Shown here in pieces: positions 40,774 through 54,813 of a stretch of 54,912 bases of DNA. The notes under the pieces are model-generated. The model was not told the DNA's origin and did not search any database. It was given only the letters and a program-made list of their open reading frames with translations. The stretch comes from Thauera carbonicopians (GTDB taxonomy: Bacteria; Pseudomonadota; Gammaproteobacteria; Burkholderiales; Rhodocyclaceae): assembly GCF_025699485.1 (NCBI RefSeq), contig NZ_JANUXN010000024.1:1-54912 (forward strand), in the 5' to 3' direction. Position numbers and translations under genes: made by a program. The stretch's first letter is position 1; each line of letters begins with the position of its first letter.

Positions 40774-40792
40774 GAGAATGATTGTCATTAAT
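40774..40792. promoter_or_regulatory. Fur box upstream of the hmu-like operon
   Basis: GAGAATGATTGTCATTAAT matches 14 of 19 Fur-consensus positions. It lies in the 322-base gap between the alcohol dehydrogenase and receptor genes, directly upstream of a TATAAT. The rest of the gap contains no gene, and I saw no cobalamin riboswitch element (no GCCACTG box) in it. Confidence 0.75.
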
Positions 40793-40795
40793 TGA

Positions 40796-40801
40796 TATAA
40801 T
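40796..40801 (+). promoter_or_regulatory. -10 element of the hmu-like operon
   Basis: A perfect TATAAT lies four bases after the Fur box, so bound Fur would occlude the promoter. The untranslated leader to the receptor start would be about 155 bases. Confidence 0.55.
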
Positions 40802-40964
40802 CACGCCGTTCCCCGCGATGCCCGCCGGAGGCGGTGCGGCACGCGGGAAGCCGCTCGGCCGCGTGATCCGCTCCCGGTCCTGCGTGCACCTTTCGACCCG
40901 ATTTTCAGCAAGCAACCGACGCCCGCGCGGCTAGGCAGCCAGCCAGATTCCGATGGAGATACCC

Positions 40965-52369: not shown

Positions 52370-53364
52370 GGTATCTCTCCGCGGGTGCGCAGGATCAGCA
52401 CCAGGAAGAAGGGCGCGCCGACCAGCGCGGTGAGCACGCCGAGCTTGAGTTCCGGCCCGCCACCGTGCAGCAGGCGCACGCCGATGTCGGCCAGCATCAG
52501 CAGCACTGCGCCGGCCAAGGCCGACAGCGGCAGCAGGCGGCCGGGATCGCCGCCGGCGAGCGGGCGCATCAGGTGCGGCGCGACCAGACCGATGAAGCCG
52601 ATTGCGCCGGACACCGAAACCGCCGCGCCGACCGCTGCGGCGCTGCCGACGAGGATACGAAAGCGCAGCCGGCCGAGGTCGATGCCGAGCGAGCGGGCAG
52701 TGTCCTCGCCCAGGGTCAGCGCCCGCAGGCCGCGGCCGCAGCCCAGCAGCAGCACGGCGCCGGCGGCGATGAAGGGCAGCGCGAGGCCGACGTCGCGGCT
52801 GCTGCGGTCGGCCAGCGAACCCATCATCCAGAACACGATCTCGCTCATCGCAGTGGGATTGGGCGACCAGTTGAGGATCAGCGAAATCAGCGCGCCGCAC
52901 AGCGAGGACACCGCGACGCCGGCCAGGATCAGCGTGGTGGCGCCGGTGTAGCGGCCGGCGAGGGCGAACACGAAAGCCACGGCAATGGCCGTGCCGGCGA
53001 AGCCGGCCAGCGGCAGCGCGAGGTAGAAGGCGTCGGCGAAGCCGGTGTACAGCGCCAGCACCGCACCCAGCGCGGCGCCGCTGGAAACGCCGAGCAGGCC
53101 GGGTTCGGCCAGCGGGTTGCGCAGCAGGCCCTGCATCGCCGCGCCGGCAATGCCGAGCGCCGCGCCCACCGCCAGGCACAGCACGGTGCGCGGCAGGCGG
53201 ATGTCGAGCAGGATGCGCTGCGGCACGAGGTCGCCGGCAAGCGTGCCCGCGATCAGGCGCCGGGGGCTGAGGTCGACGTAGCCGATCATCAGCGACAGCG
53301 CTGCCAGGCCTGCAAGTGCGATGGCGAGCCCGATCACTGCCAGCCGGCTGCGGGAGAAGTTCAT
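52366..53364 (-). CDS. FecCD-type ABC permease (BtuC/HmuU type)
   Basis: Inner-membrane permease of 332 residues with about ten hydrophobic segments. Signature stretches are DIRLPRTVLCLAVGAALGIAG, MQGLLRNPLAEPGLLGVSSG, LGEDTARSLGIDLGRLR and GFIGLVAPHLMRPLAGGD. The start at 53364 is chosen because it overlaps the binding-protein stop in an ATGA and has a G-rich site upstream; a longer version to 53412 would run through that gene. It is likely a homodimer. Confidence 0.92.
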   Translation of the reverse strand: MNFSRSRLAVIGLAIALAGLAALSLMIGYVDLSPRRLIAGTLAGDLVPQRILLDIRLPRTVLCLAVGAALGIAGAAMQGLLRNPLAEPGLLGVSSGAALGAVLALYTGFADAFYLALPLAGFAGTAIAVAFVFALAGRYTGATTLILAGVAVSSLCGALISLILNWSPNPTAMSEIVFWMMGSLADRSSRDVGLALPFIAAGAVLLLGCGRGLRALTLGEDTARSLGIDLGRLRFRILVGSAAAVGAAVSVSGAIGFIGLVAPHLMRPLAGGDPGRLLPLSALAGAVLLMLADIGVRLLHGGGPELKLGVLTALVGAPFFLVLILRTRGEIP

Positions 53365-54239
53365 CGCTGTCCCCCCTCGGCTGCGAGCAGTGCTGCGGCG
53401 TCGAGATTCCATGGTCCGCCGCAGACCGTCAGGCGCGCCGGCAGTACCACTTCGTGCGCGCCCAGCCCGGCGATCGCCGGGTGCTGCAGCAGGCGATTGC
53501 CCAGCGTCGGCGTGCCGCGGCGGTAGTCGCTGCCGATCAGCACGTCGGGAGCATGTTCGACGAGCTTTTCCAGCGGCAGGATGCCGTAGCCGGCGAGGCC
53601 GCCGCGGGCGGCGCCGTTGTCGTGGCCACCGGCGGCGAAGATGTCGTGGTACAGCGTTGCGCTGCCGGCGCTGTAGCCGCCGGAGGCGAATTGGGTGGCG
53701 AGCGGGCGAGGGCTACGGTGGCTGGCTTCGAGCTCGGCCAGGCGCTCGGCGAAGCGGGCGATGATGGCTTCGCCGCGCGCTTCCTCGCCGACGGCGCGCG
53801 CCACGCTGCGCAGTTCGGCGGCGACGTCGTCGAAGCCGTTGGCACCCGCCACCACCAGTACCGGAATGCCGAAGCGGCGCAGCATCGCCGTGGTGTGGCG
53901 GGTGGTGTAGGCGCCGACCAGCACCAGATCGGGCTGCAGGGCGAGCACTTCCTCGGCGCTGCCCCAGGCGATCGGCAGGCCGCGGGCCTGTTCATGCAGC
54001 GCGGTGCTGAAAGCATCCTGGCTGAGGAAGGAGAGGGCGGCGATGCGCTCGCGCCCGACCAGTTGCAGCAGGATCTGGTCGGTGCACAGGTTCAGCGACA
54101 CGATGCGCTGCGGCCTGGCAGCCGGTGCCGCTGCGGTAGCCGCTTGCACACCGAGCCAGATCGCAGCGAGTACGAGCAGGTACAGCCGCAGCGCAGTTGC
54201 GTACACAGGCCGGCGCAAGCGCATCATCGCCAGACGCAT
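53361..54239 (-). CDS. Periplasmic metal-chelate binding protein (BtuF-like)
   Basis: ABC substrate-binding protein of 292 residues. An N-terminal signal (LYLLVLAAIWLGVQAATAAAP) is followed by RIVSLNLCTDQILLQLVG and EEVLALQPDLVLVGAYTT, typical of the BtuF/FecB helical-backbone class. The SLNLCTD opening is characteristic of a subgroup annotated as cobalamin or iron-complex binding. No lipobox is evident. It is coupled by ATGA to the permease and starts four bases after the upstream gene of unknown function. The ligand could be heme or cobalamin; sequence alone does not decide. Confidence 0.87.
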   Translation of the reverse strand: MRLAMMRLRRPVYATALRLYLLVLAAIWLGVQAATAAAPAARPQRIVSLNLCTDQILLQLVGRERIAALSFLSQDAFSTALHEQARGLPIAWGSAEEVLALQPDLVLVGAYTTRHTTAMLRRFGIPVLVVAGANGFDDVAAELRSVARAVGEEARGEAIIARFAERLAELEASHRSPRPLATQFASGGYSAGSATLYHDIFAAGGHDNGAARGGLAGYGILPLEKLVEHAPDVLIGSDYRRGTPTLGNRLLQHPAIAGLGAHEVVLPARLTVCGGPWNLDAAALLAAEGGQR

Positions 54240-54243
54240 TGTC

Positions 54244-54813
54244 TCAGCCGCCGCACACCAGGCCGCAGCCGCTGTGGTCGAGCGGATCGGCCGGCAGATC
54301 GAGATAGGCGAGGCGCAACTCGTCCCAGGCTTTCAGCTTCGACCAGTCGGGCTCCGATGCGAGCCGGCCTTCGTCGTTGAGGAAGGGGTTGGGCAGGAAG
54401 ACCGTCATCTGCTGGTCGCCGGCGGCGGTGAACAGGCGCACGCCCCAGGATTTGGGCGCATCGTCGTTGCCGAGTACCCGGTAGAACTCGGCGCGCCCGG
54501 TGCGCCGCTTTGCAGCGAGTTCAGGCGTGGTGCCGCTGAAGTGGCCGATGCACAGGTGGAAGTGCCAGACGCCGAAGTCGACGGTCAGATAGCCGTCGAG
54601 CAGGCCGATGTTGACCGGCGCATTGGGCGCGCGGATTTCCCACACCGCACCGGGCACCAGGGTGCCGAAATGAATGTCGCGCCAGTGGCCCTGGAAGATG
54701 TCCTTGACCAGCATCCACAGCGTGTTTTCGTCGGTGGGCAGCGGCCAGATCTGGACGCGGCCCAGGCCGGGTTCGTCGATCACCGGTGGTCGCACCGTTG
54801 TCGGGTTGTTCAT
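54244..54813 (-). CDS. Uncharacterised His/Cys-rich protein leading the importer operon
   Basis: Protein of 189 residues without signal peptide or membrane segment, so probably cytoplasmic. I do not recognise a named function. Distinctive conserved-looking parts are PLPTDENTLWMLV, FQGHWRDIHFGTLVPGAVWEIRAP, DFGVWHFHLCIGHFSG and a C-terminal SGCGLVCGG. The clustered histidines and cysteines suggest metal or heme binding. GAGGAA lies upstream of the ATG. It is four bases from the binding-protein gene, the first of the ABC importer, so it is likely co-transcribed. A cytoplasmic role in receiving or processing the imported chelate is a reasonable guess. Confidence 0.7.
   Translation of the reverse strand: MNNPTTVRPPVIDEPGLGRVQIWPLPTDENTLWMLVKDIFQGHWRDIHFGTLVPGAVWEIRAPNAPVNIGLLDGYLTVDFGVWHFHLCIGHFSGTTPELAAKRRTGRAEFYRVLGNDDAPKSWGVRLFTAAGDQQMTVFLPNPFLNDEGRLASEPDWSKLKAWDELRLAYLDLPADPLDHSGCGLVCGG

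What the first reader, a model, noticed from the sequence alone, without database searches (positions are those of the whole stretch)
40774..54813. hmu-like tetrapyrrole uptake and dechelation locus in a proteobacterial context
Seen: Fur box, TonB receptor, CobN-family protein with membrane anchors, second receptor, small membrane protein, ExbB-like channel and DUF2149, converging on a BtuFCD/HmuTUV-type importer and an unknown His/Cys protein. Known: Bacteroidetes hmuYRSTUV loci combine a receptor, the CobN-like HmuS, an ExbB-like and a DUF2149 protein for heme use, and HmuS has been described as an anaerobic heme dechelatase. Inference: this is a related self-contained system in a betaproteobacterium, with two receptors, no HmuY-like hemophore and an added ABC importer. 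It would let the cell take iron, or the whole tetrapyrrole, from heme-like compounds without a heme oxygenase, of which none is seen here.
Basis: partly seen in the sequence, partly recalled or inferred. Interest (0 to 1): 0.85.

Follow-up and report, generated by a model that had tools for sequence, protein, structure and literature searches.

The report
Iron-regulated periplasmic CobN-like metal-stripping operon
This looks like an iron-starvation operon in which a cell imports a metal-carrying molecule and probably strips the metal out between its two membranes, using a distant, altered relative of the gut-bacterial haem de-chelatase HmuS; the same genome keeps a second copy that looks zinc-controlled.

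Summary
The operon is real: TonB receptor, membrane-anchored CobN-like protein, second receptor, ExbB-like channel and DUF2149 (40953-50739, + strand). A near-consensus Fur box lies before it (none in 100 shuffles; also in orthologues of two relatives).

The CobN-like protein is neither cobaltochelatase CobN (the genome has one elsewhere; AU test p 1.5e-43) nor HmuS (p 1.3e-4). It keeps catalytic His538 (here His572) but lacks the HmuS features Met79, His254-Gly-Arg, His1209 (here Asp1133), Glu1212 (here Gln1136) and the Met-rich insert. Its kind is the "BtuS-like" CobN/ExbB/DUF2149 module, which by gene content and order includes the Zur-regulated Pseudomonas aeruginosa PA1922-PA1925.

The importer and "His/Cys protein" (DUF7676) belong to a separate cobalamin-riboswitch operon that continues on another contig. 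The small membrane protein was found in none of the relatives read.

A second module in the genome has a double Zur box and the HmuS-like His/Glu pair. Elsewhere such modules sit beside nikR, hydrogenase-maturation or corrinoid genes, so the module is not haem-specific.

Best reading: Fur-controlled iron acquisition by periplasmic metal extraction from an imported chelate, possibly driven by the ExbB/DUF2149 proton channel. Substrate and energy coupling are inferred.

The parts
40773..40787 (+). Fur box core (7-1-7 repeat, 2 mismatches), overlapping a promoter-like site 40772-40801
   Evidence: 0 in 100 shuffles; same box in G018 and G022
40906..40945 (+). conserved leader between Fur box and receptor start, shared with close relatives; function unknown
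   Evidence: no convincing Rfam match
40953..42944 (+). TonB-dependent receptor 1 (CirA-like by sequence)
43018..47160 (+). membrane-anchored CobN-like (BtuS-like) class I chelatase-family protein; HFGTHG 568-573, LTTDDPFQYLGG 1129-1140
47157..49256 (+). TonB-dependent receptor 2; start overlaps stop of the CobN-like gene; present in several but not all relatives
49250..49726 (+). bPH_4 small membrane protein; found in no relative read, probably a lineage-specific insert and not a core part
49805..50341 (+). ExbB-like proton channel subunit
   Evidence: PF01618, 24.5 bits, cut-off 22.9
50338..50739 (+). DUF2149, one predicted membrane helix with an ExbD-like Asp (NLIDVFLV)
51551..52369 (-). 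ABC ATPase of a separate cobalamin-riboswitch operon (not part of the module)
52366..53412 (-). FecCD permease of that separate operon
53361..54239 (-). substrate-binding protein of that separate operon
54244..54813 (-). DUF7676 (the His/Cys protein) of that separate operon

Best explanation
A Fur-controlled iron-acquisition operon. One or both TonB receptors bring an iron chelate (a haem-like tetrapyrrole or other metallophore) into the periplasm. The CobN-like protein, held in the inner membrane by a helix at each end, binds it in the class I chelatase cavity and releases the metal, using the conserved His572 opposite an Asp/Gln pair instead of HmuS's His/Glu. The dedicated ExbB-like/DUF2149 proton channel is the likely energy source or conformational driver. 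Released Fe(II) would enter through FeoB. Shown: genes, Fur box, phylogeny, residues, predicted anchors, FeoB present, no PF01126 or PF05171 match in the genome. Inferred: Fur control itself, substrate, direction of reaction, energy coupling.
For: Fur box over the promoter-like site, kept in the orthologous promoters of G018 and G022, while the paralogue on C22 has a double Zur box and no Fur box. Solved HmuS is the best PDB match of the CobN-like protein. His538 of HFGTHG, essential in HmuS by the H538A mutant (PMC12583661), is kept. N- and C-terminal hydrophobic segments are found, as reported for HmuS, and none in the genome's own CobN. A CobN-like gene lies within 4 kb of DUF2149 (of ExbB where tblastn missed DUF2149) in 42 of 46 DUF2149 loci read from this and related genomes, a fragment at a contig edge (L051) included. 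One of the three clade mates, L054, has a Fur site before receptor 1. DUF2149 has an acidic residue at the ExbD-like position in 57 of 57 loci (45 by a pattern that demands Asp; 12 read by eye).
Against: No biochemistry exists for this clade that I found. The second catalytic His of HmuS is Asp here, and the Asp/Gln pair is what most true CobN rows show (5 of 7), which could mean metal insertion or another ligand. No Fur match at 2 mismatches was found before the operon in the other two clade mates, L053 and L055 (none at 3 in L055's promoter stretch L110). Three genomes have ExbB+DUF2149 but no CobN-family protein at all, so the channel can serve something else. One DUF2149-linked CobN-like protein (L096) has lost the HxGxH motif.
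Confidence: 0.55

Rival explanations
1. It is simply HmuS in a betaproteobacterium: a haem-specific de-chelatase releasing protoporphyrin IX.
For: HmuS is the best solved-structure match; similar gene set apart from HmuY and HmuT; Fur box; no PF01126 or PF05171 match in the genome.
Against: Met79, His254-Gly-Arg, His1209, Glu1212 and the Met-rich insert are absent; AU test rejects the window clade plus HmuS as one clade, p 1.3e-4; a Zur-boxed paralogue is closer kin (44% identity against 26%).
Confidence: 0.15
2. A corrinoid or cobalt system: the CobN-like protein removes or inserts cobalt in imported cobamides.
For: Asp/Gln in place of His/Glu is also seen in 5 of the 7 true CobN rows, the genome's own among them; the neighbouring convergent operon is cobalamin-riboswitch controlled and joins the contig that holds CobN; the Trichlorobacter lovleyi module lies between cobalamin gene clusters (PMC3403914 passages).
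Against: The operon itself has a Fur box and no riboswitch; no cobalamin riboswitch was found in the loci of the three clade relatives L053, L054, L055.
Confidence: 0.12
3. No metal removal: the CobN-like protein is a periplasmic carrier or scaffold, and ExbB/DUF2149 energises the two receptors in place of ExbBD.
For: B. fragilis btuS double mutants still made PPIX from haem (PMC6460266 passages); L096 lacks the catalytic motif; receptor-like genes lie beside many of the modules.
Against: Purified HmuS releases PPIX, and H538A abolishes it (PMC12583661); the catalytic motif is kept here; the genome has eight MotA/ExbB matches, five of them stronger than the module's two; T. lovleyi carries canonical ExbB-ExbD-TonB beside the module; Methanosarcina acetivorans, an archaeon, has CobN-family, MotA_ExbB, DUF2162 and DUF2149 matches.
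Confidence: 0.13
4. Zinc (or another divalent metal) acquisition, as proposed for P. aeruginosa PA1922-PA1925.
For: PA1922-PA1925 has the same core gene content, is in the Zur regulon and is strongly up in a zinc-depleted mutant (PMC4542158 and PMC9431628 passages).
Against: The window has no Zur site at 2 mismatches and a Fur box instead; the Zur-boxed copy in this genome is the C22 one.
Confidence: 0.05

Closest known systems
HmuS and the hmuYRSTUV operon (Bacteroidota; PMC12583661)
   Same: TonB receptor, membrane-anchored CobN-like protein, ExbB-like and DUF2149 genes; His538 motif; predicted periplasmic location
   Different: No HmuY hit, no HmuT match by tblastn; lacks Met79, HGR254-256, His1209, Glu1212 and the Met-rich insert; two receptors; separate clade
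Pseudomonas aeruginosa PA1922-PA1925 (Zur regulon; PMC4542158, PMC9431628, passages)
   Same: Receptor (cirA), CobN-like, a gene annotated ExbD proton channel family, and DUF2149, in that order
   Different: Zur instead of Fur; no second receptor between CobN-like and channel genes.
C22 paralogue in the same genome (C22:485000-504900, L045)
   Same: Receptor, CobN-like (44% identity), ExbB, DUF2149
   Different: CobW-like GTPase gene in front; double Zur box; has the HmuS-type His/Glu pair (LSTDHPFEFLGG)
Trichlorobacter lovleyi pSZ77 cobN cluster (PMC3403914, passages; record)
   Same: Receptor, ExbB-like, DUF2149 and CobN-like genes; no CobS or CobT homologues according to the paper
   Different: DUF2162 present; canonical ExbB-ExbD-TonB alongside; lies between cobalamin clusters
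True CobN / BchH (class I chelatases)
   Same: PF02514 family; CobN shares Asp/Gln at the second site in most rows, BchH shares an HFGTHG-type first motif
   Different: No hydrophobic anchors in the genome's own CobN; CobN acts with CobST (recalled; also PMC3403914 passage); AU test rejects grouping with CobN

Membership tests
HmuS (haem de-chelatase) | His538 in HFG(T/A)HG | tested here: met
   HFGTHG at 568-573; shared widely in the superfamily, so not diagnostic
HmuS (haem de-chelatase) | LSLDHxxEFMGG with His1209 and Glu1212 | tested here: not met
   LTTDDPFQYLGG: Asp1133 and Gln1136
HmuS (haem de-chelatase) | His-Gly-Arg 254-256 (head/neck haem ligand) | tested here: not met
   Val-Met-Tyr in the aligned columns, both by phmmer and by MAFFT
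HmuS (haem de-chelatase) | Met79 (other haem ligand) | tested here: not met
   Pro in the window and its three clade mates; note that Aureibacter HmuS has Arg here
HmuS (haem de-chelatase) | Met-rich insertion | tested here: not met
   3 Met in 308 residues between HxGxH and GGDP; three HmuS rows 13 in 314, 35 in 422 and 11 in 501; the Aureibacter row is itself not rich
HmuS (haem de-chelatase) | Gln299 | not tested
   named in PMC12583661; column not read
HmuS (haem de-chelatase) | groups with HmuS in a tree | tested here: not met
   62-row tree; AU p 1.3e-4; the window clade was named after seeing a first tree
HmuS (haem de-chelatase) | NADH-dependent release of PPIX from haem | not testable with these tools
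   needs purified protein
CobN cobaltochelatase | groups with CobN | tested here: not met
   AU p 1.5e-43
CobN cobaltochelatase | soluble, in a cobalamin operon | tested here: not met
   anchored by hydropathy; the genome's own CobN on C10 lies beside CobW (PF02492) in a stretch with a cobalamin riboswitch
CobN/ExbB/DUF2149 (BtuS-like) module | CobN-like gene near ExbB-like and DUF2149 genes | tested here: met
CobN/ExbB/DUF2149 (BtuS-like) module | membrane-anchored CobN-like protein outside the CobN and BchH clades | tested here: met
Cobalamin uptake operon (for 51551-54813) | cobalamin riboswitch before the operon | tested here: met
   L051 120 bits, L116 119.5 bits on C10; the join of C16 to C10 rests on synteny with G018

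The most novel reading that the evidence does not exclude
CobN-like/ExbB/DUF2149 is a general, proton-motive-force-driven periplasmic machine that strips metals from imported chelates: a pmf motor takes the place of the ATP-driven partners (ChlID, CobST) of class I chelatases. The metal served (Fe, Zn, Ni, Co) changes with the local regulator and with the residue pair opposite the catalytic His (in proteobacteria Asp/Gln with Fur sites, His/Glu with Zur sites or beside nikR).
Probability: 0.3. Interest if true: 0.85.

Novelty: new variant of a known kind. Interest (0 to 1): 0.6.

Why it matters
[quoted passage not shown] Here one genome holds two copies of the module, one with a Fur box and one with a Zur box, differing at the residues that face the catalytic His. 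That makes a clean pair for asking what sets the metal and substrate of this superfamily, and whether the accompanying ExbB-type channel powers metal removal. It also points to mis-annotation: the annotated public records fetched here label such proteins cobaltochelatase subunit CobN.

Tried and rejected
Importer as part of the system: rejected. PH protein as an HmuT equivalent: rejected as a conserved part; T. lovleyi DUF2162, HmuT of three species and the Runella permease found no match in the window by tblastn (E up to 0.01). Cobalamin riboswitch before receptor 1: none at gathering threshold, and none at E up to 10 (two unrelated weak hits). Structure of DUF2149: AlphaFold gave pLDDT 52.6, pTM 0.20 from four sequences, too poor to search. 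Profile comparison of DUF2149 with ExbD: 5.4% probability, a 14-column match that puts the ExbD Asp in register; reversed control 0.2%; suggestive only. Archaeal gene neighbourhood: not reached. The one genome-contig scan, with DUF2162, gave four loci, three of Geobacteraceae and one Methylacidiphilum MAG. For archaea only presence in the control genome Methanosarcina acetivorans is known, not adjacency. Literature: aimed at nikR-linked CobN and at pmf-driven dechelatases, listed one paper each, not opened; listings showed no title on either idea. Regulator against active site: at 2 mismatches and within promoter windows, five loci with Fur sites are all Asp/Gln-type and four with Zur sites all His/Glu-type (Fisher p 0.008). 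The proteobacterial His/Glu proteins form one clade, so this may be one evolutionary event, and 43 of the 52 loci scanned had no site. Sites lie in promoter windows more than by share of bases (Fur 6 of 16, Zur 4 of 11 with overlapping pairs merged, share 8.3%), but promoters are as a rule richer in A+T (not measured here), which favours both patterns.
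Full report
What is there. The window is the whole of contig C16 of a 4.52 Mb, 48-contig genome. On the + strand the genes run: receptor 1 (40953-42944), CobN-family protein (43018-47160), receptor 2 (47157-49256), a bPH_4 membrane protein (49250-49726), an ExbB-like protein (49805-50341) and DUF2149 (50338-50739), with short gaps or overlaps. 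A Fur box at 40773-40787 is the only match in the window at 2 mismatches, with none in 100 shuffles. It overlaps a promoter-like site with a perfect TATAAT (2 sites found, 0.9 expected). The orthologous promoters in G018 and G022 carry the same box at nearly the same distance from the leader, with 3 and 1 mismatches; G004 has none at 3. No Zur site occurs in the window at 2 mismatches.

What does not belong. The minus-strand importer and DUF7676 were read as part of the locus. In relative G018 (L051; proteins 95-99% identical) the same operon goes on to a receptor-like gene and starts with a cobalamin riboswitch of 120 bits. In this genome the matching continuation is the end of contig C10 (97% identity), with a riboswitch of 119.5 bits. 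Both contig ends are poly-G rich where G018 reads normally, so the break looks technical. The importer is therefore a cobalamin-riboswitch operon that merely converges on the module. That it imports cobamides is inferred. The bPH_4 gene matched only its own locus in a tblastn over the fetched loci; in G018 the gap between receptor 2 and ExbB is about 140 bp.

What the CobN-like protein is. The genome has three PF02514 proteins. The C10 one lies beside a CobW gene (PF02492) in a stretch with its own cobalamin riboswitch and groups with true CobN. In a tree of 62 proteins (SH-aLRT support, LG+G4 quick search) the window protein falls in a clade of four (support 100). That clade is sister to seven proteobacterial proteins that include the C22 paralogue (95 for the pair, 92 for the seven). 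Grouping the window clade with CobN is rejected (AU p 1.5e-43), as is grouping it with HmuS alone (p 1.3e-4); the clade was named after a first tree, which weakens such tests somewhat. HmuS and the other 49 CobN-like rows together lie apart from CobN and BchH (support 100). Composition bias and two long branches (L069, L096) are warned of in that output. Identity of the window protein is 69-72% to its clade mates, 44% to the C22 paralogue, 29% to the genome's CobN and 26% to HmuS of Bacteroides finegoldii.

Active site. The HmuS paper (PMC12583661; abstract, introduction, structure, body, haem-site, H538A and discussion sections read) names Met79, His254-Gly-Arg, Gln299, His538, His1209, Glu1212 and a Met-rich insertion. 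H538A abolishes PPIX release. The window keeps His538 (His572). Met79 is Pro, HGR is Val-Met-Tyr, His1209 is Asp1133, Glu1212 is Gln1136, and the insert region has 3 Met in 308 residues. Gln299 was not tested. Of the three full HmuS rows used, Aureibacter itself lacks Met79 and is not Met-rich. Asp/Gln at the second site is also seen in 5 of 7 true CobN rows, while the seven C22-type proteins keep His/Glu. Hydrophobic segments at both ends (a simple hydropathy scan, which finds only one or none in some relatives) fit an inner-membrane anchor with the body in the periplasm, as published for HmuS.

A module used for several metals. Across 46 distinct DUF2149 loci (30 in 24 of 150 relatives; 16 further ones among the 17 of 398 phylum genomes with a match) a CobN-like gene lies within 4 kb in 42, a contig-edge fragment in L051 included. 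One contig ends too early (L048), and three genomes have ExbB and DUF2149 but no CobN-family protein. Of 11 plasmid records with a DUF2149 match, 10 were read: nine have a CobN-like gene, and the tenth (Paracoccus alcaliphilus, E 0.02) looks like a chance match. They show different surroundings: hypABF and hypCDE around the module in Runella slithyformis, nikR with a perfect NikR-type site in Azospirillum brasilense, cobalamin genes plus canonical ExbB-ExbD-TonB in Trichlorobacter lovleyi, HmuY loci in three Bacteroidota, and no annotated receptor in the stretch read from a Comamonadaceae plasmid. The same gene set is the Zur-regulated PA1922-PA1925 of P. aeruginosa (PMC4542158, PMC9431628, PMC8531726, PMC8456098, PMC13083405; passages only). 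In this genome the C22 copy has a double Zur box and no Fur box, the window copy the reverse. In G022 the His/Glu-type module follows a Zur box and a gene for a ribosomal protein L36 (PF00444), a kind of gene known from the Zur regulon of P. aeruginosa (rpmJ2, named in PMC8531726 and PMC8456098 passages), which supports zinc control there. Zur, Fur and NikR consensus patterns were written from recall, partly checked against the site printed in PMC8456098.

Energy coupling. DUF2149 has an acidic residue at the start of its membrane helix: Asp in 56 of 57 loci, Glu in the other, resembling the ExbD/TolR/MotB proton site (recalled). Sequence statistics for homology with ExbD are weak and the fold prediction failed. 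The genome has eight MotA/ExbB matches, the two module copies ranking sixth and seventh. Methanosarcina acetivorans, an archaeon, has CobN-family, MotA_ExbB, DUF2162 and DUF2149 matches; whether they are adjacent was not seen. Together these hint that the channel serves the CobN-like protein itself. The three genomes with the channel but no CobN-like protein speak against a strict coupling. Published models instead give HmuTUV a transport or TonB-energising role (PMC12583661; PMC13227078 passages).

Physiology. No haem oxygenase of PF01126 and no HemS were found; HugZ/HutZ-type enzymes were not searched. FeoB and ferrochelatase are present. Iron freed in the periplasm could enter by FeoB, as reported for B. 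fragilis (PMC6460266, passages including part of the abstract). That paper also reports that btuS double mutants still release PPIX, which is evidence against a simple de-chelatase role.

Verdict. The reading as an hmu-like system holds at the level of module kind, not of HmuS membership or haem specificity. It is a new variant of a known kind.

Noticed in passing
window 40906-40945; L053 about 19031, L054 about 16803, L055 about 1103: A conserved leader, roughly CCAGCnACCnAnGCC then GGnTAGGnAGCCAGC, lies just before receptor 1 in the window and in G018, G022, G004, G084 and G065. No convincing Rfam match; it may be a regulatory RNA or operator.
   Followed up: partly
window 54830-54912: Right contig end is a poly-G run, as is the end of C10 (L116); G018 reads normally there, so it looks like a sequencing or assembly artefact.
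   Followed up: yes
L062 (G022) 6811-6960, - strand: A ribosomal protein L36 gene (PF00444) lies between a Zur box and the receptor of the His/Glu-type module.
   Followed up: partly
L096 (G337), CobN-like protein: A DUF2149-linked CobN-like protein whose catalytic HxGxH motif is replaced (SLFSNI in the aligned columns); possibly inactive or a different function.
   Followed up: partly
L037, L039, L065 (G087, G147, G070): ExbB-like plus DUF2149 pairs in genomes without any CobN-family match; L065 also has a Fur-type site at 7272, about 2.7 kb away.
   Followed up: partly
L074 (Runella slithyformis pRUNSL01) and L076 (Azospirillum brasilense p4): CobN/ExbB/DUF2149 modules inside a hydrogenase-maturation cluster and near nikR: possible nickel versions.
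   Followed up: partly
L041-L044, L101-L104: A separate clade of DUF2149-linked CobN-like proteins with HxGRHS and NNDAFDYLGG (or similar) motifs; no function known.
   Followed up: partly
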